A stretch of 32,357 nt of DNA from a virus, in the IMG/VR virus record IMGVR_UViG_3300017775_000003, positions 1-32,357 of that record. One strand, written 5' to 3'. The notes beneath the pieces are model-generated. The model worked only from the letters and a program-made list of their open reading frames with translations. It was not told where the DNA came from and searched no databases. This document shows, one piece after another, positions 8,017 to 32,357 of this stretch (its first letter is position 1; each line of letters begins with the position of its first letter). A program made the translations under genes and the position numbers.

Positions 8017-8331
8017 TTATATTTCGAGGTCACTCAGCTCATCCTCTTCTGAGCCCTCGTAAAGTTTCGAGTCTGCTAGTGATTCTATACTGCTAACAGC
8101 CCCTTTGAAACCATTAGCGAATCCTGCATTAAACTCAAGGTCTTTTTTATCCTCTATACAACTAGACTGAGTTTTAATTACCATATTCAATAACGTCATC
8201 CCCAGCTTCTTTCCAGTGTCAGAACCAAGGAACATCTCAAGTACCTTTGCGTCATCTACTGTCCATTCCGGTTCATTCACCCACCCTATCTCTCTGGCAA
8301 AGAGCATCATCGCCCTTATCTTTCTAAGCAT
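8017..8331 (-). CDS. Hypothetical protein between portal and scaffold, 104 aa
   Basis: Mostly helical and mildly acidic; notable pieces are MLFAREIGWVNEPEWTVDDAKVLEMF, LGMTLLNMVIKTQSS and NAGFANGFKGAV, with an acidic tail EEDELSDLEI. Small proteins at this location are common in this type of phage and may be packaging or head-completion accessories; no family is recognised. ATG at 8331 overlaps the end of the HNH gene by 16 nt; a second ATG at 8310 (MMLFAREIGW) has AAGGG just upstream and might be the ancestral start before the endonuclease gene arrived. Confidence 0.6.
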   Translation of the reverse strand: MLRKIRAMMLFAREIGWVNEPEWTVDDAKVLEMFLGSDTGKKLGMTLLNMVIKTQSSCIEDKKDLEFNAGFANGFKGAVSSIESLADSKLYEGSEEDELSDLEI

Positions 8332-8879
8332 ATCTTTTTTCCTTTTCTTATATTATCCCTTTTCCACATTGGTTTCAAGTTACTGAAGTGCCAACAGGCG
8401 TCCATTTCCTTCTTGTTTTCATGGTCAAAGGCGGAAATTGGTATATGGTGGTCTATTGTCCATCTCTTCGCGTAATTAGCCCAAGTCATTCCCTTCTTGA
8501 ATTGAACCTCTAAATGCTTCAGTAAATGGTTTCTGTCGCATCCCATTAAGTCCATCGTCTTTCTGCTTTTCCCTCTTATTATCGACGACAATCTGGAGCG
8601 TAAGTTGCATATTATTCTGAGCTTTGGGTCTGATTTTTTTCTTGAAAGCCTCTTTGCATTTATAACGTCTTTGTATGTTTCGTAGTATTTCTTATGCCTT
8701 AACCGTGCTTTCTCTAAATTTGAGTAATAATTATCGCTCGACTTCTTCTTGAGCCGCTCACGATTCTTCTGATAATACCGACTCTGCTGCTCTCTTATTT
8801 TCTCTCTGTTTTTCTTATAGTATTCCTTACGCTCCCTGCTGCGGCATAGCTTGTTGTTGCTGTCCTTGTTGTTCCCCAT
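8316..8879 (-). CDS. HNH homing-type endonuclease, about 187 aa
   Basis: The C-terminal region holds the HNH core: TWANYAKRWTIDHHIPISAF with D-H-H, then SNLKPMWKRDN for the N-containing helix. The N-terminal half is a lysine/arginine/tyrosine-rich repeat (KEYYKKNREK, RYYQKNRERL, KKYYETYKD) as in many phage HNH proteins, probably DNA contacting. Homing endonucleases cut unoccupied alleles to spread their own gene. The open frame extends to 8984, but the first 35 codons lie in the portal gene in another frame; ATG at 8879 is chosen, still overlapping the portal 3' end by 53 nt. It appears as an inserted gene between portal and its normal neighbour. Confidence 0.75.
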   Translation of the reverse strand: MGNNKDSNNKLCRSRERKEYYKKNREKIREQQSRYYQKNRERLKKKSSDNYYSNLEKARLRHKKYYETYKDVINAKRLSRKKSDPKLRIICNLRSRLSSIIRGKSRKTMDLMGCDRNHLLKHLEVQFKKGMTWANYAKRWTIDHHIPISAFDHENKKEMDACWHFSNLKPMWKRDNIRKGKKICLER

Positions 8880-10692
8880 CCTGAGGTGCTCCCATCTGCC
8901 TTTCCTCTGATAGCGAGGCGGCTGATTCGGAAAGTTGTTTGCGAAGTTGTCTGGCTGCATTTGGATTTGTCTCTTCGTAGGCATCCAGCAATTCAGTCAA
9001 CCTCGTAACTATTAACTGTTGAGTCTGTTCAGATATTCCCTCTTCTCCGGCCATCTTCTGGTCTAGGTATTGGACGAGAACTCCGATCCTTAGCTCAAAG
9101 TTTTCATCCCCCCTGACTGGCACTGGGAATCCGGTTTCCATAATTCCTATATTGTTAGCCTCCTCAAGCCCTTCATGCTGTTGTCTCATCTGCGGGTCGA
9201 GGAACATTCTTCGCACCAAGCTCGGATCATCCAGTTCAAGTATGGAGCGATCCAGTTCTGCCTGATTTATGAACGGAGAACCGGAAAACAACTGCTTACG
9301 TTGCATAGCCTGTTGCAGCTTTAATGCGCGGTTCTGACTATCAGGCCCACCCTTGGGTTCAATAACATATTCACCCATAAAGGCGTCCGGTTCAATCCGT
9401 CCATTATCTTCACGGTATCGGAAGTTCAAGTCCTCCTTGTTGTATTGCAGATAGAGGTTCCATGATTGTCGATACAGTTCACCGAGGGACAAACGGAACA
9501 CGCGAGCACGCAGGTCGTTGGATTCAGCCATGAGGCCGCTTATTGCGTTAATTTCGGTTGCCGTCCTTCGGTCTCCTTTGTTCTGCATTGATTGAACACC
9601 AAAGTCGGGCATACCGATGCGTTGCTCTGCGATATGTCGTGTCAGCTCGATTTCCTGATCCCAGCTAATAGGAGGGCTGCTCATCTGCACTGGAGCTAAA
9701 CCAACCGGAAGTATCTGGGCAGGGGAAAGTCTAATGTTACTGCTGTTGGGTATATCCCTGTCGGTCTTGAACATCGGGCGATTGTAAAGAGTCATTGCGT
9801 CATGCTTCTCGTTCCACATCTTGCAAAGCGACGACTCAAACGGGGCTAAGATTTCACAAACACCGCGAGGAGAATACCAGCCCTTGTCCTTTATCTCATA
9901 ACTGAAATCAACGAACGGATAGCTGCCGTGGTTGTAATCCAGTTCCATTGTCGGGCGAACGTCCATGCTGGCAACCTCTGGGCAGAACGTCTGGACAAAA
10001 ACCTTGTCGTCCTTCTTCTCATAAACCTCCCACAGAATTATCCTGTTCATGTCGGAGCTATAGTTAATTCCTTCGCGGCGATATGCGTTCACCTCTTTTT
10101 CATTGCTGTTGCCTACCTTGCCCCGCTTGGACTGTATCTCGTTTACGTCAACACCGGAATAGAGTGGATTTCTCTTAAACGAGTCTACGCTCATCTGCAT
10201 TATGTTCACTACCCGCTCTGACTCCTGAAGGTTGCGAGTCTTTTCGGGAACCACAATCATCATGGGGTCTATTGCATCATACTGAACCTTCTTCTTCTGC
10301 TCATCCCAGTAAACCTTTACGACAGACCTTCCGCTCATCAGCCCGTGATCTATCCATGTAAGCCCTTCCGTAAGGAAATTCGTTCTCTCCTTTATCTTGT
10401 AATCGAACCACCGCTCGGCTGTAACTGTCATCCCCGCGTCCTGCTGCCTCATCGGGATGAACGAAGCTATGGTATCCATCCCCACGATCTGCATAAAATA
10501 GAACGGCTTCAGTCTCTCAACAACAGAGTCAGATAGGGGGAAGTGAAGGTCGCTGGCGTTCTTCCAAGGCTTATTCTTTCTCCTTAGCCCAGTGTGGCGC
10601 ATCTCATACCATAGGCTCTGACGCTGCTCCCACCTTGACCTGTCCTTAATGTCGCTGGTTATCTTGTCGTGTAATTCTGCCCTGTTAGTCAT
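8827..10692 (-). CDS. Portal protein, 621 aa
   Basis: Dodecameric ring through which DNA is packaged and ejected. Supporting features: size, position downstream of the large terminase, and a typical portal text: KNASDLHFPLSDSVVERLKP near residue 44, GLTWIDHGLMSGRSVVKVYW near 108, the acidic wing (DPMMIVVPE), HGSYPFVDFSYEIKDKGWY near 255, RTATEINAISGLMAE near 375, and a Gln-rich C terminus (QQGQQQQAMPQQGA). The layout is like P22-class portals of podovirus-like phages. AAGGAGAG directly before the ATG is an excellent ribosome site. The tail end is overlapped by an HNH gene in another frame, so the final few codons may have been altered by that insertion. Confidence 0.88.
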   Translation of the reverse strand: MTNRAELHDKITSDIKDRSRWEQRQSLWYEMRHTGLRRKNKPWKNASDLHFPLSDSVVERLKPFYFMQIVGMDTIASFIPMRQQDAGMTVTAERWFDYKIKERTNFLTEGLTWIDHGLMSGRSVVKVYWDEQKKKVQYDAIDPMMIVVPEKTRNLQESERVVNIMQMSVDSFKRNPLYSGVDVNEIQSKRGKVGNSNEKEVNAYRREGINYSSDMNRIILWEVYEKKDDKVFVQTFCPEVASMDVRPTMELDYNHGSYPFVDFSYEIKDKGWYSPRGVCEILAPFESSLCKMWNEKHDAMTLYNRPMFKTDRDIPNSSNIRLSPAQILPVGLAPVQMSSPPISWDQEIELTRHIAEQRIGMPDFGVQSMQNKGDRRTATEINAISGLMAESNDLRARVFRLSLGELYRQSWNLYLQYNKEDLNFRYREDNGRIEPDAFMGEYVIEPKGGPDSQNRALKLQQAMQRKQLFSGSPFINQAELDRSILELDDPSLVRRMFLDPQMRQQHEGLEEANNIGIMETGFPVPVRGDENFELRIGVLVQYLDQKMAGEEGISEQTQQLIVTRLTELLDAYEETNPNAARQLRKQLSESAASLSEERQMGAPQDGEQQGQQQQAMPQQGA

Positions 10693-11229: not shown

Positions 11230-11500
11230 CCCTATAGCCCATGCGCCAAAGGAGCTTTGAGATATTGAGTGCTGCTGTATCAACCCATTCTTCCTCATTA
11301 TACTTAGGTATAGACGGGTACTCTGCGTGTAGACATTCATGTATTACTACTTCCAACCTTCTCCGCCCTTTTATCCTTGGGCTTATAGTAATCGACTTCT
11401 CCTTATCAGGTATCACATCGGAGTCGATGCACAACCCGTCAATATCCTCAATATGTATATTAAACTTCCCCGTGCTAAATTCATGTGTCTTTATTCCCAT
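11225..11500 (-). CDS. Small HExxH metallopeptidase-like protein, 91 aa
   Basis: The sequence VVIHECLHAEYP places H54-E55-x-x-H58, the zinc-binding motif of zincins; the acidic cluster EEEW near 69-72 could give the third ligand. The C-terminal helix ends KLLWRMGYRE. I recall small phage proteins of this kind (HExxHAxxP...LWRLGYR) next to terminase genes, without known substrate. At 91 aa it is a minimal domain, so activity is unproven. The ATG overlaps the large terminase stop (TAATG). Its 3' end shares sequence with a microgene at 15983-16072, see findings. It could cleave a virion or host protein or only bind metal. Confidence 0.68.
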   Translation of the reverse strand: MGIKTHEFSTGKFNIHIEDIDGLCIDSDVIPDKEKSITISPRIKGRRRLEVVIHECLHAEYPSIPKYNEEEWVDTAALNISKLLWRMGYRE

Positions 11501-12993
11501 TATCCAGCATTCATCCCTGCCACGCCATATCCAGCATCTTCTTCCTCCTCCTCACCCCATATCAGATCAAAGACGCTCTTGCGTGAGCCCATTACCGCTG
11601 GGTTGTTAATACCACCACAAGCCAATGCACCCACCAGCGCATCTGCCCTATCCGGCGAATTAAGCCCCCTAGACTTCATATCCTGCTTACTCTCCAACAT
11701 TAGCTTACCTTTACTGCTAGTCTTGCCCAATCTAGTCGTAAGCTGTTCAACTAATAGATCATCTTCCGGTAAACGTACATCACCCTTTTCAATCATGCGA
11801 GCAGACTCATACCACATCTCAGCACCTCTGTTTCCATAATGCCTGTCATCATAAGCCCTGCTACCGTTATTTACCCTGTTAACCACCCAGCCAGCCTCGC
11901 CCAACGCATCACACATCGGAATCCCCAAGCCTCCCGCATCAGCATATATATTGGAGGCTTCCAGTCCCATCTTCTTAAACTCCATAATAAACCGCCCCAC
12001 CCCCTCCATCGTATTCCTCTCCTTCCAGCATTTAAGGGGTAAAACCTCATTCCCGTCCCGAACACATAATACATTCTCATCACCCCCAGCCGCAAAATCA
12101 CAGAAGGCTATCTTCCCGCCAGACCGCTTTGAAGGTGGATTCTGATAACAAAACTGTAGCGTGTTATAGGGTATTACCAGATTCTCAGAGCCCAAGTCCA
12201 TGAACTCCCCATAAATCATAGACCTAACCAGAGGATGCTCAATACCCCACTTCTCCGTCTGCTCATCAATCCAGTCCTTCGGTATATGAGGGCAGTCGAA
12301 AGCCGTAACACTATGCGTATCCCAATAACTAGCCTCCTTCGTAAATGCCCTGTAAAACGAACCGCTCGGCCCACCGGGGGATGACATCACCAATAACCTG
12401 CTAGGCTGACATCTGGCTATAGCCTCATATATCGTATCAGGAACCGTCTTAGCCTCATCCACTATCATCATCAAATTATCAGTCGGCCCCTGCCTATGCC
12501 ACCCCTCAAACTTACCCGCATCATTCGTACTAAACCCAATAGCCCTAGAACCATTCTGATGCTCCAATTCACTACTCGTAACCCGCCAGCCATCACCCAG
12601 ATTAGCAATATACTTCCTGAGACTAGGCCAAAGCTGATCCTCAACCTGACGCCATACCCCCGCCGTAGTAATAGTCAAACTCTGAGGGAACCTTATCATG
12701 TGCCACAGAACAGCCGCTCCTGCAACCACAGCGGTCTTTCCTGAGCCGTTTGCTGCCTTCATGGCTACACGGGACTCCTTGAAATTAAGATCGCTTAGAA
12801 CGCGTTTCTGCCACTCATAAGGTTTAATGCCCAGAAACAACTCAGGGAAGTTCTCCAGATTAGCCGAACGCTCCACTATAGATCGCTTCGTAAGGGCCTT
12901 ATCTCCCTTTTTAGCGACCTTTTTCTGTATTTCACCCGCAGTTTTCTTCGATATCTTAGCGGATTTTAGGGGGTTCTTTAACTTGAGGCCCAC
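11500..12993 (-). CDS. terL: Terminase large subunit, 497 aa
   Basis: DNA-packaging motor. ATPase domain: Walker A AANGSGKT at residues 80-87, Walker B LMMIVDEA with D180/E181, coupling motif LLVMSSPGG at about 201-209. Nuclease domain of RNase H type: D300 (AFCDFAAGGDEN), D353 (YADAGGLG), and D449/D452 (NSPDRADALVGAL). An acidic tail EEEEEDAGYG ends the protein. Full-length and apparently intact. The start is GTG at 12993, with CGGAG ten bases upstream; no ATG is closer. Directly downstream of the small terminase and overlapping the HExxH gene by one base. Confidence 0.92.
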   Translation of the reverse strand: MGLKLKNPLKSAKISKKTAGEIQKKVAKKGDKALTKRSIVERSANLENFPELFLGIKPYEWQKRVLSDLNFKESRVAMKAANGSGKTAVVAGAAVLWHMIRFPQSLTITTAGVWRQVEDQLWPSLRKYIANLGDGWRVTSSELEHQNGSRAIGFSTNDAGKFEGWHRQGPTDNLMMIVDEAKTVPDTIYEAIARCQPSRLLVMSSPGGPSGSFYRAFTKEASYWDTHSVTAFDCPHIPKDWIDEQTEKWGIEHPLVRSMIYGEFMDLGSENLVIPYNTLQFCYQNPPSKRSGGKIAFCDFAAGGDENVLCVRDGNEVLPLKCWKERNTMEGVGRFIMEFKKMGLEASNIYADAGGLGIPMCDALGEAGWVVNRVNNGSRAYDDRHYGNRGAEMWYESARMIEKGDVRLPEDDLLVEQLTTRLGKTSSKGKLMLESKQDMKSRGLNSPDRADALVGALACGGINNPAVMGSRKSVFDLIWGEEEEEDAGYGVAGMNAG

Positions 12994-16631: not shown

Positions 16632-17315
16632 ATGCCATACAAAACTAAAGAAGAAAAGAGGCTATACGATATTGAGTACAGAAAAAAGAACCCCATAAAA
16701 CTAAAAGAGAATAAAAGAAAATACTATTACGAGCACCGAAGGGAGTGTTGCGAATACTCTAAGAAATGGGTCGCCGAAAACAAAGAACGGCATAAAATGA
16801 ACGGCCTAAAATGGAGAGAAGAACACAAAGAAGAATACAAAGAATACAAGAAACAATATAGACTAAGGAATCTAAAGAAAATCCTAAGGCGAGAGGCAAA
16901 ATATCGTAAACATCTAAAGGCAGACCCTGAACTACGAAAGAAAGAGGCTGAGTATAAAAAGAAATGGGCCAAAGAAAACAGTGCAGACTGCATACTAAGA
17001 GCCGATTGGCATAGAGCCACAAAAAGAAACGCAATTCTACCCTCTTCAGATGCTAATAAAATAAAAGAAATACTATCAGAGTGCAGGGCTAAGACTAAAA
17101 GATGTAAAAGAAAATATCACGTTGACCATATCATACCGCTTCACATTGGAGGAGCACATCACCAAGACAACCTAAGAATAATTACAGCCTTAGCAAACCT
17201 AAGAAAACAGGGCAAGTACATACCCTCTCTAGGTGGAGTATGGGCTGATAACAAACTAGCTAAGAAGAACAGGAGGAAGTATGGCGTGGGAAGCACAATG
17301 GAATCTAAAGCCTAA
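16632..17315 (+). CDS. HNH endonuclease with Lys/Tyr-rich N-terminal region, 227 aa
   Basis: The C-terminal part carries HVDHIIPLHIGGAHHQDNLR (about residues 163-182) and then ANLRK, an HNH fold with D-H pair and downstream N. The first 140 residues are repeats of charged Y-K-K-K-W and K-E-N-K-x-R elements, like the repeats in the other HNH gene at 8316-8879, although the cores differ. GGAG lies seven bases before the ATG. Its 3' end overlaps the next gene by 35 nt. Probably a free-standing homing endonuclease. Confidence 0.78.
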   Translation: MPYKTKEEKRLYDIEYRKKNPIKLKENKRKYYYEHRRECCEYSKKWVAENKERHKMNGLKWREEHKEEYKEYKKQYRLRNLKKILRREAKYRKHLKADPELRKKEAEYKKKWAKENSADCILRADWHRATKRNAILPSSDANKIKEILSECRAKTKRCKRKYHVDHIIPLHIGGAHHQDNLRIITALANLRKQGKYIPSLGGVWADNKLAKKNRRKYGVGSTMESKA

Positions 17316-19426: not shown

Positions 19427-19711
19427 ATGGAAGTTATTAAGCAAACTTCTTGGGTACTTCCCCTTATGATAGAGGCAACAGCCGTTGAGTTAAAAGACAA
19501 CAGGGTTGATGACCTTATACAGTTCGGGGTAATTACCAGTGCAGGACATCCGGTTGGGCCTCGTCTATTGAAGGGTGAGGATAGTCCTAACATACAGGAT
19601 TGGGGGCCGTTTTGTGAGTTCGAGCCAGCGGAAAAGCTGAAGAACAGACTCACGGCTCACATAGAGAAAACAGAAAAGCGTAAAGAAAAGAGAACAAGGA
19701 GGAAGAAATGA
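19427..19711 (+). CDS. Unknown early protein, 94 aa
   Basis: Starts MEVIKQTSWVLPLMIEATAV, then GVITSAGHPVGPRLLKGED and WGPFCEFEPAEKLKNRLTAH; a highly basic tail (EKRKEKRTRRKK) ends it. The tail may bind DNA or RNA. AAGGA lies seven bases before the ATG. Its stop overlaps the start of the lysozyme-like gene (ATGA), so the two are translated together. No family recognised. Confidence 0.58.
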   Translation: MEVIKQTSWVLPLMIEATAVELKDNRVDDLIQFGVITSAGHPVGPRLLKGEDSPNIQDWGPFCEFEPAEKLKNRLTAHIEKTEKRKEKRTRRKK

Positions 19712-20187
19712 AGAAACTATTACTGTTAATGCTTACGCAAATGTGGGCATCGGCACAACTACACCACGGCAACATATCATGGGAACTTGTCGAGGCCATA
19801 CGTCAGGTTGAAAGCGGTGGCCGGAACGTAGCTGGAGATCACGGTCTTGCGAGAGGGCAATGGCAGTTCCATCGTGAGGCTTGGAAGGATATCAACCTGT
19901 TCAGGGCAAAGAGAAAGCTGCTAACATATTCCTATGACTTTTCGTGGAAGGAGAAGGTGTCTAGGATATACGCTTATGACTACCTACATATCCAGAGAAG
20001 CAGGTTCCTCAAGACACAGAAGATGGAGCCCACCACTACTGAGCTATGGTATATGTGGAGCTTGGGATACGACAGGTACGTTGTACAATGCAAGGCAGAC
20101 ATAGAGAACCTTACAGTACCGGAGAGGGTGAGGGCATGGAAGAAGTCTATACTAATAAACAACCTAATCAGAAAACAAATGGAGTAA
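19708..20187 (+). CDS. Secreted lysozyme / transglycosylase-like protein, 159 aa
   Basis: Starts with a Sec-type signal peptide (MKKLLLLMLTQMWASA); the following domain has the catalytic environment of lysozyme-like transglycosylases: WELVEAIRQVESGGRN (Glu35 the likely acid), GDHGLARGQWQFHREAW, and helical segments with YDYLHIQRSRFL and SLGYDRYV. It could be the phage endolysin, exported by Sec and acting on peptidoglycan, or a local wall-degrading enzyme. No classical T4 motif is present. Excellent ribosome site AAGGAGG. Odd location for an endolysin: plus-strand early block, far from the holin candidates on the other strand. Confidence 0.72.
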   Translation: MKKLLLLMLTQMWASAQLHHGNISWELVEAIRQVESGGRNVAGDHGLARGQWQFHREAWKDINLFRAKRKLLTYSYDFSWKEKVSRIYAYDYLHIQRSRFLKTQKMEPTTTELWYMWSLGYDRYVVQCKADIENLTVPERVRAWKKSILINNLIRKQME

Positions 20188-24142: not shown

Positions 24143-27100
24143 CTACCTGACAGGCTCGGTGACGTAATCCTGAATGGTTTCACCACGTTGTTGCAGACGC
24201 CTCATTAAATCGTTTGCAACTTCCTGAGTGAGAATCTTCTTACGCGCTAAGTCTGTCAGGTAGACCTTTACTTCTGCGGGACTCTTACCCTGCAACTGAT
24301 TCATAACAACAGCCGCCCTTACAGTAACGGGCGAGTTCTTCATTCTAATTTCTTCCGGCTCCAATCCGAGGGCCATCTCCCTAAGCCTACGAACAATCAA
24401 ATCATTACGAAGTTTCTCACTATGGTTACGGGCAGGTTGTATATGCCTAACCCTATCCTGAATACTCATACCTCTGGTATCATTCATCCACCTGTCAACA
24501 TATCTTCTACGCAGAACCCGATCAGTCGCGCCAACCATGTCGGCATCATCCATGATCTCCATAATCTCACTCTCGGCAAGATAGGTGCTGCGAGCAAGAC
24601 GGGCGATAAGCGGAGTAGATGCAAGAGTTCTACCAGCAGGAGCAGCCCCAGTCTCATCCGGTATCCCCACATTCTTGTTAGGTATAAACTGTGTAATGCC
24701 GCCAGCGGTAAGGGTTTCAACCAGATGCTTAGTCCTTAACGCACCCAAGCTAGTGAACCCTCCAAGAGCCTTGTAGATATCAGGTGTACTTTCATAGTAT
24801 TGCTCCTCTGGTGCGGCCTTTAACATTGAGATTGGAACTATTGGCTTATGACGGAAGAAGTTCCTGTTGCCCATTAGTTCAGCGGGAGCCTTGATTAGAG
24901 GATTGAGACTGGAACCTACGCTCTCCATAGTCTTAACCAAGTCACCCTCAGTTACCCCAGCTACGTTAATTGGCATCGTTGACTCCAGCCAGAATCCGAG
25001 CATCTCGCTTACTGCATCTGGGTCACGGTCATACATCCAGTCAAGCCCCTTCTCAAGTGTGTAGGAGAACAGGCCAAAAGATTCGCGTCTCGGTATGCGG
25101 ATATAATCCCTGACCATCTTGCCCTCGATATAGGGGTGTTCAAAATGCTCATCAAGCGGGATCATAAAGTAACGCTTCTTCTCCTCATCACTTACCTCAT
25201 CGTAATCATCCTTGTACCTTCTGTTCATCGACCAAGCCATCATGGTGGGAAGGGCAGCGAAGGCACTCAGCTTCATCATCACCATCGCCGCTTCACCCTT
25301 ATCTCCACCCTTCTTGAACACTTGCAGCATCCTAGATAGATCACGCTCAACGCCCTGTACTCTGGCATTGAAGAACATAAATATAACATTCAAAGCCTCG
25401 CTCTCAGTGAACTTACCCTTTCTTATGAAGTCAGGTGATCCAGCGTAGTTCCTTATCTCAACGGCAATCTGATCCATCCTCTCATCCAGTTGCTTCTTCA
25501 GTGCCATCCTCTTTTTGGAATCAGTGGTTGCCTCCATCTTTGATACAAGCTCATCAATCCCCTCAAATCCCATCATCCTCTGCATCCCCACCATCTTGGC
25601 AGTCTGCTCCAGAGTCTTACCCACCAGAGATAGTTTTGAATTGGCCCATATAAGTGGGTTTCTTCTTGGTGAACCATGCCTCATCAGGGGGTCTTTGATC
25701 TGGGTAGCTTTGCTGAAGTATTCGGCTATGGTCGATCCAGCCGCGCCACTGTTAACAAACTCATTATATAAACTATCAAGTCCCGCCACCTGATCTGGAG
25801 CGAACTTGCGAACTAAATTCTTAATTGAGTTTGGTGTAAGGTTTTGCCAAGAGGATGAAGCCAGAGCCTTGAAATACTGAAGGGCTAATACTATCGGGCT
25901 CAACCCTTTATCCTTTGCCCTTAAACCAGCCTTGGATGTGGTGAGTAGACGGATCGGGTCGAACAACATAAAGTTACCCAACTGGAAGAACGCATTGACA
26001 CCTGTTGCACCCAGCTTGAATATATCCCCAGCCATCTTGGTAGCTATATAAGTGTGGGAAACGCTCACTGGATCAAATGTGTTAAGCAGCCTAGCTATCT
26101 CCCTGTCAAACCAGAGGTATTTAACTTCCCCGTTCTCGAAGAACTTAACCTCCTCCATGTCAGCAGCAGCACCTATGGTTTCAGACTTCTTTATGTACTT
26201 ACCATCTGGATCAAAGTCCCTGCGGAAATCCTCAATCTTGGTTATGAACACATTCCTGTCCACCCTTAGCTGGGTCATATATAACTTGTACCTTGCAGCA
26301 TCCATCGGGTTCAGGACTGACCAATCACCAGACTTAATCCCCGTAATCATCTGCCCGAACGTGTCCTCTGGGTTCCTATTGAAATGCTTCATCACAAAGA
26401 ACGGAGCGTAGAACGAGGTTGATGCAGACATATTACTGTAGGATGTGCCTGATATAACACCGGACTCGAACATATCCTTCAGTGCTTCCTCAAAGTGTGC
26501 ATGATAAACTTCACTTGCCTCAATAAATTTACCGTCAAACAATGGCCCATCCGGCCCTCGCAGAACATTCCCTTCGGCATCTGTCTTGTGCCTTAACATC
26601 TCTGGGTCGTCTATCTCTGCCATGAGAGCATCCAACCCTCCAACCAACTTGGGAACATCCGACCTATTCTTGTAGGTTCCAACCTCCCTCGACTTCGTTA
26701 GCAGGTTAATCAACTCAATCTGAATGTCCTCGACTGTCTTTCCACCAGTTAGCTCATCCGGTGGGACAATGAACTCGCCAGTCTTGGGGTCTATATATTC
26801 CTCAAGGATTCTTATTCTCGCAAGATCACCCTCGGATGACTCGTTAACCAGCCTGTCCTGTATTCTTAGATTAAGCAGGAAGCGATTAAACCTCTCCATC
26901 GTCTGCTTGTTTCCGCCTATCAGGTTGTTTATAGATTCATTAAGCCTACCAACACGCAGGTCAGCCTTAACCGGACTACCAGCCTGAAGCTCATGTTGCT
27001 GGGCCAATGTTATCCTAGTCTTACCCGCAATGTTATTCTGCTCAAAGACCATATCCTGAAGTATAGATAGTGGGTGAGACTTTGTGATGACAGCTTCCTT

Positions 27101-30100
27101 GAACTTATCCATCCAAGACATCTCCTTCTCAACCAAACCCTTCTTTGCTTCTGGGGATTCTAGTCTGCCCTTTAGATCATCATTAACTTCTTCAGGCGTA
27201 GTTGGAACTGCACTCTCTCTACCCTTAGCGAACGCACCAGTAATCTCTATATCAGTATCGTCAAAGATAACGTAGTTGTAGTTGCCTTCGCCCTCTCTTC
27301 TGGCTGCACCTTCAAGGTATTTGTTACCTCGTATGCCGTGCTTGAGAAGGAGCAGGGAAGTGTCCTCCTTTGTGCCGCCTATAATACGACCAATCTCCCT
27401 GTAAATATCCATACCATTACCTAAATTAACTGGAAGCAACTCACCCAACTCATCCTCGATAGCGTTCAAGGCTTTGGAAACTTTAGAAGATTGCTCGGCA
27501 CGGTTCTTATCAAGCAACAGGTATTCGTCCTCGGCGGGGGCTAGTGTGACTTCGTATATTTTGCCCTTGGGTCTGCTTACTTTAAGGCGTTCCCAAAAAT
27601 CGTATCGGAATCCTTTTCCCACGCTCACCCCTTGACTCTCCAGATTCCCTAGCCATTCAATAGCTCCTATGGAAATTTCATCGATTACCTCAATAGAAGC
27701 ATCCTCATAAATAGCAAAAAGATCTTCCTCCGCTTGGGTTAATTCGACTACATCCCCACCCTTCCAGAGCTCCATCAGCTTTTTCTTAATTTCTGGGCCT
27801 GATTGCTCCCATTCAGCGAATGATTCAGGGGAGGCTTCTTTCATCTTCTCCAAATTCAATCTCTCTATCAACGCCTCTACCTCTCCTGTTCCTCCCATAT
27901 CCTCCCATGTAAAGTTGAGATTAGGTTCTTCGATAGATTCCCTAGTAAGGCGAACTAATTCTGGCCCCAGTTGCGTAATCCAAGATTTAGCTTGCGATAA
28001 TTTAACACCTTTATTTTCCGACGGATATCTGCTGGGGTTCCTGAGTACATAAGCCATTTGTGCCAACGCAACTGCCCTCGGTAACGCATCCTTCTCCACC
28101 CTTTCAGATTGCTCGGCAAATTCCGCACCGCGCCCCTCTGCCACAAGCTCATCACCAGTTTTCCCATCCCATGTAATTTCCAACGGCCCCGATCCCGTCA
28201 AACCAGTTCCTCTCATATTCTTATAATGCTCTGCAACACCCCTAGACGTAGCAAAGTAAAGACCCCAGCCGTATGCCTGATGCCCCTCACCTTCGCCTAT
28301 GTTTTCAGTAGAGAACTTATCAAATCGCTCTGATCTAGGTGTACCGTGTAAGGCTGCTGCGGCGAACATGGCATCAATCAATTCACTCTCATTCTTCAAG
28401 CCGTCCTTCATGTCTCGGAATAACTCTCTGCTATTCTCAATCGGAACAACCTCTTCGCCTTGGAGGGTGGACTTATCCATAACAAAACCATGTCTGGGAT
28501 CGTCAGGCACACCGATGTTCATACTGTAGTTGGCTGTATCGAGTTGCCTTATGGTAATGACACCCCTCCCGCCAGTTCCTATAAAGTCAGCATAGTTCTT
28601 TGGGCCAACCATAGACCTGTCTGCTGCTGCCATCGAGCCCATCTCAACAACCTCATCAAGAAGGCTTTCGTACTGCTTGCTTAATCCAACTATACTCTTC
28701 AGTATCTCCCAGATTTCATCAAGCAATGTTAGCCCACTTGTGAGAGTATCTCCCTTTCTGGTTGAAGGAATCGTTTGTAGAAAGCTCCTGAACTCGTCAT
28801 TGAACATAGCGTGTGCCACAAACTCAAGGTCGCTGGTGAACGGGTAATAGTCCAAGCTCCCGAATGTATCACCCTTGTTCTTGTATGCCTTCCTAGCCTT
28901 CTTGAGCATCCTGTTCAGCCTCGCCCTATCCGCTTTATTGTGAGGACTAATAATCGAGCCAGAAGTTAGGGCATGGAAGTATTCCTCTAAAAGAACCTTC
29001 ATCGCCGAGAACTCACTGTTGCCCATTCTGGTAGGATCAATAATAATCTGATCGTAAATCTGGTTATAGAAACCCGCAGGTGCAGCATTGGTAGCATCCG
29101 ACTCCAGACGACCAAGCAGAACCGGAACCTTCAGGGTGTTCTTGGATTCAGCCAACTTGAATAGCGGCCTAAACCTGTCCACATACTTTCTCTGGGACGG
29201 TGTAAGTTTGCTGTATAAATGATCGAAGGCTTCTGATACTGGAACATTACCCAATCCAGCGGGAAGAGGCGAGAACAGCATATCAGGTTGACCTTCGCTG
29301 ACAGCACCCTTGGCAAACTGGGCATCCTCCGAACTGTTAAGAAACTCTTCCTCTGAGCTAATAGACTCGTAAAGTGAAGCCTCATTGAACGCACCTCTAA
29401 CGTCCCTCCTCAACATCTTGATCTTCTCTTGTATATAATAGTTAGTCCACTCTCCACCACCACCCGCCCCATAAACAGGCTCAGTCTTTTTCTTACCAGT
29501 GAACGCCTTATGCTGTGCCTTGGACACTGGCCTGTAGGCTCCACGTTTATTAGACCAGATATAGTATATTGTTTTAGTTACCTTAGGAGCCCCAGTTAGC
29601 TTGGAGAAAACTTCCTTGGCCCCTTCCCTGTCAATGCCCCTGCCCCTAGCCTTGTTGATCTCACCGTAAATTCTGGCTATCTCTTTCCTGACTTTATCAA
29701 AGCTGAAGTTCCTAGTATCGTCAGCCCTTTCACTTATTATCTTCTCCAACTTAATCCGTAGATTGAACAAGGAATCAGAAACAATCTTACGCCTAGCCTC
29801 AAGTTCAGCCAGATATTCCTTTGCCCTGCGTTGAACAATCCTGTCTCCCTCCTTTACATTGATCTTTACATTGGTATTTCTAGGAAGAACTCCCTCCCTC
29901 TGTATCACCTCAAAGTATCCGGCAAGTGCAGAGTTATGGGTTATGATGGTGTCGGGGGTTAGCTCGGTATTCTCTGCCAAGTATTCATCTGAGAATAATT
30001 CCCCTGCCCTGATTTGTGTGCCAAAGGACTTGTACCTCTTTACAAATTGTTCCAGCTTGTTTCCGCTTAGTAAGTCTATCTTCTGGTCAAGTTTGGAAAT

Positions 30101-32357
30101 CTCCCTAAACAACCTCTCCCTCTCCTTCATTGTCTTGTACTGCTCCGGCTTCTTCGCGTTGTCTAGTTCAATCGACCTTGTTAGCTCAGGAAGAAAAGCC
30201 TCATTCCATATCCTGTTCCTTACCCCACTCATGCCGTGAGCTTCAATAGCACCAGTAGTCTTAAACCCTATCCTGTCGTCCAACATAGACCTGAACTGTG
30301 CAATAAAGCTGGCTATATCTTCTCTCGCCTTCTGAACCCTAGCTACATCTTCAGGTGTCCGGTTGGCTTCATCAATCTGTCTGCCTAAGTCTGGGCTGTT
30401 GGCTATTAACTGATCTGCGGAATCCAGACTATCATCTTGGTAGTGTTCTTCGTTTGTAAATTCTGATGCAGCCTCAAGTTTCCTTCCAAGAGGGCTATCC
30501 TCAGTAGCTTCTTCCACAATCGCTGGCATCCTTAGCTCACCCGTGACCCTCTTAACCCCCTCATGAGGTCTTGCGGCAAACTGTTCCTCCAGCTTTTTAT
30601 TTTCATTCCTAACCTTTTCAAGACTGTCGCGCATTGAGTTTAGAATGATAGTCTTGCCGCCAAAATCCCTGTAAAGACCACGATCCCCAACTGACCTACC
30701 CTTATCCTTATGGTTCTGAACACGATCCCTAGCCTGAATGACAGCCTTTGTGAAAGCGTTCCATGCCATGTCAGCAGCCGGAGTCCCGTAAGTGTTCCTC
30801 CAGTTGGATGCGAGGTGGGTGGCAAATCTTCTCCAAGTCTCTATAAGGCTGACATCAAGCATATTGCCGTCCTTATCCCTTACCTCCTGAACAGGCTCGG
30901 CAAACCCCGCTAGTTCTTCCTTGCTAAATTCTCTCCACAATTTCTCGTTAAACAACTGATGCCTTGGGTCGTACTCAGCCTCAGTCGTGGTGCTAAGGTC
31001 GTGCTCCTCGTTTATCTGGCTTATCTCCGCGTCGATAACTGCCATCTGCTTCTTGAGTATTTCAACAGTTTTGGGCTCATTTATATTACTGACAGCTTTA
31101 TCCTCAAGATCACTACGCTGTTTGATTAGATTGTTTATTCTTTTAACAGCACTGGAGGTACTCAAATCCTGTTCGGTTGCTTCGGGAGATAACTCTATGG
31201 GCGTTCCGGTGAATAGTTCTGACCCCTCAACTCCTATGTCAGCAGGTCTTTTTGCTTCTCTCCTGCCCAGTTCTCTGTTTGCCTCTAGGACTGCCCTCTC
31301 CTTCGGGGTCATCACCTTCTGCTTAAATCCAATTTTCTCTTTCTGTGTTGGTTCGCCAGCTTCAACCTCAATCTTCGGCCCCTTCCTCTCTGTCTCTGCC
31401 TCTTCAATCACCTGCTCTGTCGTCTTTTCAACTTCGAGAACATCCTCCGCAGCCATCGTCACCCCTGTTGCTGGGTCTATCTTAACCTCTCCCTTTACCT
31501 TACCCTCCTTCTCGGCAGCACTAGCCTTATTGGCAACCCTATCAAAAAGATCGCCAGTTCCGGTATCTGCCTTTCTACCTTTGACTACACCTTTGGCAAA
31601 TGGCGCACCTCCTCCAATACCTACGTCAGTCGTTGCCTCATAGTTCTCATCAAGGTAAACTCCAAGTGCTCTAAGCGTTTCTGTGTCCTTCTCCTCAATT
31701 AGAGTTCCGTAAGTATCAGCCGCTTCATTGAAGATATCCCTGAAACTCAGCCCCTCTCCAGAACCAGCAATGGCCTCCCTCACAAACTCTGTTATCAGTT
31801 CAGACGATTGAGCAGTTTTCTCACTATCAGACATGGCTTCAAGGATAGCGTCCTCAGGGCTTGAGAGAACATTGAAATTCTTTTTACCCAACGCCTCTTC
31901 AAGAATGTTGACCGCATTAGAAAGCTCCATTGATTCACCCTTGAGAGCGAGCTTCTCCTGCCCTTCTCTGGTGACTCTTACTCGGCTTGCTTTAATTCCT
32001 TTTTTCTCAGCGATTTCTTTAAGCCTTTCAGCAGACGGATTCTTCTCTATGGTAACAAGCTCAAGGTCTACCATCTTCTCTCTCTCATCAGCATCCTTCT
32101 CTACCATATAGCTATCAACCTGAGCCCTCTTCCCTATAACATACTCTGCGTCAGGTTGAGCCTCCTCTGTTTGGCTAAGTCTGAAAGCATAATCACGGGC
32201 AGCTTGTCGTTCCGCTCTGGCAATGTTGTTGTTTATCGCCTTGAGAGCCTCCTTGTGTCCTGTCTTGGTTACTGCCCCCTCTTCACTTGGCGGGATAGCC
32301 TTCTCATCCTTGCTCTTAACCAAATAAACTTCATCAATGTGCTCCTTGAATATCTCA
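24143..32357 (-). CDS. Giant polyvalent protein with zincin, ADP-ribosyltransferase and LPD38-like regions (partial, N terminus off the right edge)
   Basis: Read through the right edge without a stop (upstream residues EIFKEHIDEVYL precede the TTG at 32323), so the true start lies outside; 2,737 residues are visible. N-terminal ~1,000 residues: charged, helical, coiled-coil rich. About 28973-28987: LLEEYFHALTSG, a zincin-like helix lacking the first His. About 28346-27258: HGTPRSERFDKF, AYGWGLYFATS, NYVIFDD, a PARP-like ADP-ribosyltransferase with a large insertion. About 25680-25330: WANSKLSLVGKT, YAGSPDFIRKG, FNARVQGVERDL, typical of LPD38 in phage polyvalent proteins. Two hydrophobic stretches lie in the C-terminal third. 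Such proteins are carried in virions and ejected with DNA. Confidence 0.85.
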   Translation of the reverse strand, partial: EIFKEHIDEVYLVKSKDEKAIPPSEEGAVTKTGHKEALKAINNNIARAERQAARDYAFRLSQTEEAQPDAEYVIGKRAQVDSYMVEKDADEREKMVDLELVTIEKNPSAERLKEIAEKKGIKASRVRVTREGQEKLALKGESMELSNAVNILEEALGKKNFNVLSSPEDAILEAMSDSEKTAQSSELITEFVREAIAGSGEGLSFRDIFNEAADTYGTLIEEKDTETLRALGVYLDENYEATTDVGIGGGAPFAKGVVKGRKADTGTGDLFDRVANKASAAEKEGKVKGEVKIDPATGVTMAAEDVLEVEKTTEQVIEEAETERKGPKIEVEAGEPTQKEKIGFKQKVMTPKERAVLEANRELGRREAKRPADIGVEGSELFTGTPIELSPEATEQDLSTSSAVKRINNLIKQRSDLEDKAVSNINEPKTVEILKKQMAVIDAEISQINEEHDLSTTTEAEYDPRHQLFNEKLWREFSKEELAGFAEPVQEVRDKDGNMLDVSLIETWRRFATHLASNWRNTYGTPAADMAWNAFTKAVIQARDRVQNHKDKGRSVGDRGLYRDFGGKTIILNSMRDSLEKVRNENKKLEEQFAARPHEGVKRVTGELRMPAIVEEATEDSPLGRKLEAASEFTNEEHYQDDSLDSADQLIANSPDLGRQIDEANRTPEDVARVQKAREDIASFIAQFRSMLDDRIGFKTTGAIEAHGMSGVRNRIWNEAFLPELTRSIELDNAKKPEQYKTMKERERLFREISKLDQKIDLLSGNKLEQFVKRYKSFGTQIRAGELFSDEYLAENTELTPDTIITHNSALAGYFEVIQREGVLPRNTNVKINVKEGDRIVQRRAKEYLAELEARRKIVSDSLFNLRIKLEKIISERADDTRNFSFDKVRKEIARIYGEINKARGRGIDREGAKEVFSKLTGAPKVTKTIYYIWSNKRGAYRPVSKAQHKAFTGKKKTEPVYGAGGGGEWTNYYIQEKIKMLRRDVRGAFNEASLYESISSEEEFLNSSEDAQFAKGAVSEGQPDMLFSPLPAGLGNVPVSEAFDHLYSKLTPSQRKYVDRFRPLFKLAESKNTLKVPVLLGRLESDATNAAPAGFYNQIYDQIIIDPTRMGNSEFSAMKVLLEEYFHALTSGSIISPHNKADRARLNRMLKKARKAYKNKGDTFGSLDYYPFTSDLEFVAHAMFNDEFRSFLQTIPSTRKGDTLTSGLTLLDEIWEILKSIVGLSKQYESLLDEVVEMGSMAAADRSMVGPKNYADFIGTGGRGVITIRQLDTANYSMNIGVPDDPRHGFVMDKSTLQGEEVVPIENSRELFRDMKDGLKNESELIDAMFAAAALHGTPRSERFDKFSTENIGEGEGHQAYGWGLYFATSRGVAEHYKNMRGTGLTGSGPLEITWDGKTGDELVAEGRGAEFAEQSERVEKDALPRAVALAQMAYVLRNPSRYPSENKGVKLSQAKSWITQLGPELVRLTRESIEEPNLNFTWEDMGGTGEVEALIERLNLEKMKEASPESFAEWEQSGPEIKKKLMELWKGGDVVELTQAEEDLFAIYEDASIEVIDEISIGAIEWLGNLESQGVSVGKGFRYDFWERLKVSRPKGKIYEVTLAPAEDEYLLLDKNRAEQSSKVSKALNAIEDELGELLPVNLGNGMDIYREIGRIIGGTKEDTSLLLLKHGIRGNKYLEGAARREGEGNYNYVIFDDTDIEITGAFAKGRESAVPTTPEEVNDDLKGRLESPEAKKGLVEKEMSWMDKFKEAVITKSHPLSILQDMVFEQNNIAGKTRITLAQQHELQAGSPVKADLRVGRLNESINNLIGGNKQTMERFNRFLLNLRIQDRLVNESSEGDLARIRILEEYIDPKTGEFIVPPDELTGGKTVEDIQIELINLLTKSREVGTYKNRSDVPKLVGGLDALMAEIDDPEMLRHKTDAEGNVLRGPDGPLFDGKFIEASEVYHAHFEEALKDMFESGVISGTSYSNMSASTSFYAPFFVMKHFNRNPEDTFGQMITGIKSGDWSVLNPMDAARYKLYMTQLRVDRNVFITKIEDFRRDFDPDGKYIKKSETIGAAADMEEVKFFENGEVKYLWFDREIARLLNTFDPVSVSHTYIATKMAGDIFKLGATGVNAFFQLGNFMLFDPIRLLTTSKAGLRAKDKGLSPIVLALQYFKALASSSWQNLTPNSIKNLVRKFAPDQVAGLDSLYNEFVNSGAAGSTIAEYFSKATQIKDPLMRHGSPRRNPLIWANSKLSLVGKTLEQTAKMVGMQRMMGFEGIDELVSKMEATTDSKKRMALKKQLDERMDQIAVEIRNYAGSPDFIRKGKFTESEALNVIFMFFNARVQGVERDLSRMLQVFKKGGDKGEAAMVMMKLSAFAALPTMMAWSMNRRYKDDYDEVSDEEKKRYFMIPLDEHFEHPYIEGKMVRDYIRIPRRESFGLFSYTLEKGLDWMYDRDPDAVSEMLGFWLESTMPINVAGVTEGDLVKTMESVGSSLNPLIKAPAELMGNRNFFRHKPIVPISMLKAAPEEQYYESTPDIYKALGGFTSLGALRTKHLVETLTAGGITQFIPNKNVGIPDETGAAPAGRTLASTPLIARLARSTYLAESEIMEIMDDADMVGATDRVLRRRYVDRWMNDTRGMSIQDRVRHIQPARNHSEKLRNDLIVRRLREMALGLEPEEIRMKNSPVTVRAAVVMNQLQGKSPAEVKVYLTDLARKKILTQEVANDLMRRLQQRGETIQDYVTEPVR

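What the first reader, a model, noticed from the sequence alone, without database searches (positions are those of the whole stretch)
24143..32357. Giant injected effector candidate combining degenerate zincin, PARP-like ART and LPD38
One minus-strand gene takes a quarter of the window (>2,737 aa) and joins several effector-type domains with long coiled-coil regions. The order (zincin, ART, LPD38-like end) suggests a virion-carried protein that modifies host proteins at entry. Polyvalent proteins are known in phages (LPD and ART domains); this particular combination and size deserve a domain-by-domain annotation.
Basis: partly seen in the sequence, partly recalled or inferred. Interest (0 to 1): 0.72.

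Follow-up and report, generated by a model that had tools for sequence, protein, structure and literature searches.

The report
Giant phage ejection protein with swappable ART
This is a giant protein that a short-tailed phage very probably carries in its head and ejects into the bacterium; it holds a protein-modifying (ADP-ribosyltransferase) domain that differs between phages whose genes are otherwise about 98% identical, on a frame that also contains a metalloprotease-like domain whose zinc motif has been altered.

Summary
One minus-strand ORF (24143-32356, at least 2737 aa, cut by the contig end) contains a zincin-like domain, a PARP/diphtheria-type ART and LPD38. Full relatives are 2.8-3.6 thousand aa; the window lacks about 430 N-terminal residues. 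By gene order it is the last, largest member of a podoviral ejection-protein cluster, where T7 gp16, N4 gp50, cyanophage A-4L ORF27 and JC1 gp69 sit; the last three are in virions. Both ends are conserved; the middle carries cargo. Two points go beyond the known class. (1) The zincin is homologous to N4 gp50 C1, but its first zinc-ligand His is Glu (EExxH) in all six lineages of the clade; an outgroup (L130) and nine N4-like phages keep HExxH. It is probably not a standard protease. (2) In three metagenome contigs 94-98% identical elsewhere, DNA identity collapses within the ART: start and end motifs stay, the middle differs. At least two other ART-bearing giants show this clearly. Other relatives carry a second zincin or nothing there. 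Best reading: an ejection protein with a conserved delivery frame and an exchangeable ART that modifies a host target at entry. Target, activity and virion presence are untested here.

The parts
24143..32356 (-). giant ORF, residues 1-2737 (stop at 24143-24145); 5' end lies beyond the contig, about 430 residues missing
   Evidence: residue 1 aligns with residue 433 of the full-length relatives L003 and L005
29240..32356 (-). variable, charged middle region (residues 1-1039), no recognised domain
   Evidence: roughly 10-45% identity to relatives; no Pfam match above cut-off
28637..29239 (-). pseudo-zincin domain (residues 1040-1240), homologous to N4 virion RNA polymerase domain C1
   Evidence: hhalign prob 86.8%, E 4.3e-06, score 46.5 against at most 17.7 in 60 shuffles, 94.6% with L130 added; VIA Z 5.7 to 9pnr 2138-2366
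28973..28987 (-). EEYFH (residues 1124-1128) at the place of HExxH; third ligand Glu kept at residue 1178 (28823-28825)
   Evidence: EExxH invariant in six lineages; HESIH in outgroup L130; HExxH in nine N4-like phages
27227..28369 (-). ADP-ribosyltransferase domain (residues 1330-1710), the exchangeable slot; core positions H1337, Y1367, N1694, D1699
   Evidence: divergence between alleles confined to this stretch
24146..27154 (-). conserved C-terminal frame (residues 1735-2737)
   Evidence: 54-68% identity over about 1000 aa across the clade
24683..25213 (-). LPD38 (residues 2382-2558)
   Evidence: Pfam PF18857 E 1.7e-17; HTVC010P AGE60290 is a stand-alone relative

Best explanation
The protein is the last and largest ejection (internal virion) protein of a podovirus of about 39 kb. 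It is packed in the head and expelled into the host ahead of or with the DNA. The conserved N-terminal 430 residues (not in the window) and C-terminal 1000 residues with LPD38 form the frame that is encapsidated and threaded through the tail channel. The middle carries cargo: a zincin-fold domain that has lost the canonical HExxH ligand set and so probably serves as scaffold or linker, and an ART that uses NAD+ to mono-ADP-ribosylate one or more host molecules at entry. The ART is replaced or diversified as a unit while the frame stays the same, which fits selection on target choice. Shown here: ORF, domains, zincin homology and ligand change, allele pattern. Inferred: encapsidation, ejection, catalytic activity, host target, cause of the diversity.
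For: Domains. Gene order in L003: tail adaptor-like protein, nozzle-like protein (phrog_578 head closure and phrog_511 internal virion), 183, 322 and 741 aa proteins, then the 3204 aa giant. Other phages have a giant late in a similar cluster: CP2 ORF24, DC33, vir555 with an annotated internal virion protein upstream, A-4L ORF27. A-4L ORF27 is chain B of 9k3a, a pre-ejectosome solved in the capsid, and its sequence carries an HGT...GTYF ART-like signature. JC1 gp69 (4515 aa, LPD38) was found in purified virions by mass spectrometry with 51 unique peptides (PMC9144972). N4 gp50 has NTD, RNAP, zincin C1 and helical C2 and is ejected (PMC12633501). Cassette pattern.
Against: No virion proteome for this phage. 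ART-PolyVal is below the Pfam cut-off in the window itself. Foldseek alone gave no match at E 0.001; the fold evidence comes from the second aligner. The position of the tankyrase catalytic Glu holds Asn here. The C-terminal model was too poor to use (pLDDT 48) and that region shows no profile similarity to N4 C2. Not every pair of related giants shows a variable ART (L072/L074 and L086/L092 do not).
Confidence: 0.72

Rival explanations
1. The giant is mainly an anti-restriction or head-morphogenesis protein of the DarB type; the ART protects phage DNA or disables a defence system instead of reprogramming the host.
For: JC1 gp69 and Bcep22 gp75 are annotated DarB-like (PMC9144972); [quoted passage not shown] one of the ART fold matches is an anti-CRISPR protein.
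Against: No helicase or methyltransferase domain here, unlike JC1 gp69. It is a different target for the same kind of delivery and does not exclude the best explanation.
Confidence: 0.25
2. The ART is catalytically dead and, like the zincin, is only a structural module; the whole protein is conduit.
For: The zincin of the same protein has lost a zinc ligand; Asn stands at the catalytic Glu position of tankyrase; two relatives lack an ART (L009, L016).
Against: His, Tyr and Asn are nearly invariant in 48 rows of diverse ARTs while the rest of the domain diverges, which is the pattern of an enzyme kept for activity.
Confidence: 0.12
3. The cassette pattern is an assembly artefact: short-read assemblies joined the ART of one strain to the frame of another.
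For: All contigs come from metagenomes, and the flanks are conserved enough to confuse an assembler.
Against: All alleles are in frame with intact start and end motifs; the pattern recurs in unrelated giants from other samples (L063/L082, L075/L078). Mis-joining would still need several real ART alleles.
Confidence: 0.08

Closest known systems
Phage-type polyvalent proteins (Iyer et al. 2017, PMC5512222), including Tox-ART-HYD2-like ARTs, zincin MPTases and LPD38
   Same: very large multidomain protein of a phage combining ART, zincin and LPD38; late-gene context
   Different: zincin motif is EExxH throughout the clade; ART behaves as an exchangeable cassette
N4 gp50 virion RNA polymerase (PMC12633501; 9pnr)
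   Same: giant ejected protein; homologous zincin domain C1; a large C-terminal block follows
   Different: no RNA polymerase domain found; C-terminus not detectably related to C2; C1 ligand His lost
Cyanophage A-4L ORF27 (9k3a chain B)
   Same: large late ejection protein of a podovirus; ART-like fold; Z 11.5
   Different: 1717 aa; no sequence-profile match to this ART family; another large protein and tail fibre genes follow it
JC1 gp69 / Bcep22 gp75 (DarB-like)
   Same: 4515 aa giant with LPD38 at the end of the structural module, in virions; MCP of the same Pfam family (PF13252)
   Different: carries lytic transglycosylase, helicase/methylase-like and LPD3 domains; no ART or zincin listed in that paper's domain table
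T4 Alt
   Same: virion-carried ART acting at entry
   Different: R-S-E type ART, not part of a polyvalent protein (PMC5512222)

Membership tests
LPD38 (PF18857) | Pfam profile above curated cut-off | tested here: met
   64.5 bits against cut-off 27; met in all relatives scanned
ART-PolyVal (PF18760) | Pfam profile above curated cut-off | tested here: not met
   18.4 bits against 31.2 in the window; allele L002 30.4, relative L131 37.6
ART superfamily, PARP/diphtheria-like | fold and conserved His in strand 1 and Tyr in strand 2 | tested here: met
   (tankyrase 2 Z 8.2, diphtheria toxin Z 8.0); H1337 and Y1367 conserved
ART superfamily, H-Y-D type | Asp in strand 5 | tested here: inconclusive
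   D1699 present, 40/48 conserved; the position matching tankyrase E1138 (from alignment end points) is N1694
Zincin metallopeptidase | zincin fold / homology | tested here: met
Zincin metallopeptidase | HExxH with third Glu ligand | tested here: not met
   EEYFH, third Glu kept
Phage-type polyvalent proteins | several unrelated effector-type domains plus LPD in one phage polypeptide | tested here: met
Podoviral ejection proteins (T7 gp16 / N4 gp50 position) | last, largest gene of the ejection cluster after adaptor and nozzle | tested here: met
   L003 gene order; in the window itself only by relatives, as the junction is missing
Podoviral ejection proteins (T7 gp16 / N4 gp50 position) | present in virion and ejected | not testable with these tools
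   needs virion proteomics; virion presence reported for JC1 gp69, A-4L ORF27 and N4 gp50
N4-type virion RNA polymerase | T7-like RNA polymerase domain | tested here: not met
   no RNA polymerase match in the window or full-length relatives

The most novel reading that the evidence does not exclude
ART domains of podoviral giant ejection proteins are specificity cassettes: phage populations keep one delivery frame and exchange or diversify the ART to follow changing host targets or defences, and in this clade the neighbouring zincin has been turned from a protease into a non-catalytic EExxH domain. Ejection proteins would then be a second major hot spot of adaptive exchange in phages, besides tail fibres.
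Probability: 0.45. Interest if true: 0.66.

Novelty: new variant of a known kind. Interest (0 to 1): 0.52.

Why it matters
Polyvalent ejection proteins were described by domain content, but which part is frame and which is cargo has been unclear. Near-identical alleles that differ only in the ART give a natural experiment: the frame can be held constant while ARTs are compared for targets. The zincin, thought to process such proteins, has here lost its canonical motif in a whole clade while an outgroup keeps it, which bears on whether self-cleavage is needed. The ART targets of such phages are, as far as I know, unidentified.

Tried and rejected
Foldseek of the zincin-ART model against PDB: nothing below E 0.001; the second aligner was needed. 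C-terminal fold prediction: pLDDT 48, not used. C-terminus against N4 C2: no similarity. ART profile against PDB sequences: only chance hits. Prokaryote genomes searched for the C- and N-terminal frames to find a host or prophage: none. Wider search for the zincin: only the same clade, partly because the search pattern itself required EE; the HExxH outgroup came from the C-terminal search. An apparent paralogy between the N-terminal domain and the upstream gene came from two wrong ORFs in my profile and vanished after correction. Ranges used for two pairs were wrong and were redone. PHROG 873 'endolysin' and 5107 'amidase' labels are not supported as functions here: the former match covers only the C-terminal half of the ART. 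More alleles of the L003 type were sought by DNA pattern: none beyond the three.

Full report
What is there. The minus strand of 24143-32356 is one open frame of 2737 codons that runs off the contig. The record is an IMG/VR virus contig of 32,357 bases. Other genes mark it as a tailed phage: terminase (phrog_2), SU10-type portal, Phage_capsid_3 major capsid protein and tail fibre on the minus strand, ERF recombinase and a weak PD-(D/E)XK nuclease match on the plus strand. In full relatives (L003, L005, L006, L009, L016; 2.8-3.4 thousand aa) the protein begins about 430 residues earlier. The adaptor-like gene sits at the left window edge and the giant at the right edge, both on the minus strand; the missing 6-7 kb would hold the nozzle, three small genes and the giant's start, so the contig is probably a cut, permuted genome of about 39 kb (inference from L003, 38.6 kb, and L006, 40.4 kb).

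Domain by domain. LPD38: residues 2382-2558, E 1.7e-17. It lies in a C-terminal block of 1000 residues with 54-68% identity across the clade; the Pelagibacter phage HTVC010P has a 504 aa protein with LPD38 alone. The C-terminal part of the predicted ART core is confident (pLDDT mostly 90-98) and the domain matches tankyrase 2, diphtheria toxin, an anti-CRISPR protein and the A-4L ejection protein. From the end points of the tankyrase alignments, catalytic E1138 falls on N1694; this is arithmetic on ranges plus recalled residue numbering, not a printed alignment. Zincin: residues 1040-1240.

The zincin. Profile alignment with nine N4-like virion RNA polymerases gives 86.8% (E 4.3e-06), rising to 94.6% when the outgroup L130 is added. 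Column shuffles never exceed 40% of the score and the reversed alignment reaches 51%. In N4-like phages and in L130 the motif is HExxH; in the window, L006, L009, L003, L005 and L016 it is EExxH, with the second His and the third Glu kept. The C-terminal tree groups L130 with L131 on a long branch apart from the others, though unrooted. The simplest history is one H-to-E change at the base of the window's clade. Loss of peptidase activity is inferred; Glu could still help bind a metal.

The slot. L002, L003 and L004 come from three metagenomes. Along the giant their DNA is mostly 92-100% identical in 50-column windows, but inside the ART it falls to 33-86% with large length differences. At base level the break lies at the codons around the catalytic His and the recovery at the codons for YNYVIFDD. 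blastn finds no alignment of L003 to L004 between 14443 and 15173, with 97.7% before and 95.3% after. Protein identity over 50-residue windows is 98-100% upstream, about 21-63% over most of the ART and 90-100% downstream for L003 against L004. In the same slot L009 has a second zincin-like stretch with HEIAH and IDEFIAEAF, L016 has little, and L005 has an extra insert with an HERRH motif. Among other giants fetched by their ART, L063/L082 and L075/L078 show near-identical upstream flanks and a divergent ART middle, and L029/L036 a weaker case; L072/L074 and L086/L092 do not. The ends of the domain with the core residues are kept and the middle changes, as expected if substrate choice changes and chemistry does not (inference). 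The count is small and the pairs were found through the ART, so frequency cannot be estimated.

How it probably works. Podoviral ejection proteins are packed in the head and form the channel through the envelope; the largest has an enzymatic part and a DNA- or membrane-associated part, and domains are known to swap between them (PMC8954989). N4 gp50 is the best parallel: a lipid-binding N-terminus, an effector, the zincin and a helical C-terminus, proposed to be ejected last (PMC12633501). The window protein has a similar layout, with an ART after the zincin and no RNA polymerase. JC1 gp69 (LPD38) and A-4L ORF27 (ART fold) show that proteins of this kind are in virions (PMC9144972; 9k3a). The ART would act on host molecules at entry, as T4 Alt does; RNA polymerase, translation factors or a defence protein are all possible.

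Novelty. The class is known since 2017 (PMC5512222); that paper lists LPD38 as found only in phage-type proteins and gives as prototype an ART in a protein with an N4-like RNA polymerase module. What I did not find described in the searched library is allele exchange of the ART in an otherwise constant ejection protein, or the clade-wide EExxH zincin. The library lacks most subscription papers, so this is not proof of novelty.

Limits. The family sequences are all from metagenomes; no host is known. The nearest terminases are in Akkermansia phages at 34-38% identity, which is only a hint.

Noticed in passing
L003 6437-8662 (741 aa gene upstream of the giant): This second ejection-protein candidate is also highly variable: L003 aligns with L012 up to 6520 and again from 8690, with no DNA alignment between.
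   Followed up: partly
L003 5122-5475: A 117 aa frame in the structural module matches Pfam Flavokinase (PF01687) above its cut-off (24.2 against 19.6 bits); unusual place for a riboflavin-kinase-like fold.
   Followed up: no
L131 6062-12475: Another giant (2138 aa) with weak GNAT matches, ART-PolyVal above cut-off and LPD38 in one protein.
   Followed up: partly
L009 8051-9421 (slot after the pseudo-zincin): A second zincin-like stretch with HEIAH and IDEFIAEAF sits where other members have the ART, so an intact-looking motif coexists with the degenerate one.
   Followed up: partly
window 8316-8984 (-) and 16632-17315 (+): Two frames that read like HNH endonucleases (DHHIPISAFDH; DHIIPLHIGGAHHQDNL), one overlapping the end of the portal gene; by eye only.
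   Followed up: no
window 11500-12993 (-): Terminase closest to Akkermansia phages (34-38% identity), a possible hint at a Verrucomicrobiota-type host.
   Followed up: no
window 19708-20187 (+): Small protein with a lysozyme/transglycosylase-like stretch (AIRQVESGGRNVAGDHGLARGQWQF) but no PHROG or Pfam match.
   Followed up: no
L105 (PQ492659.1, Limnohabitans phage DC33): Record is filed under Inoviridae but is a 39 kb genome with an LPD22 plus ART giant in a podovirus-like gene order; the taxonomy looks wrong.
   Followed up: no
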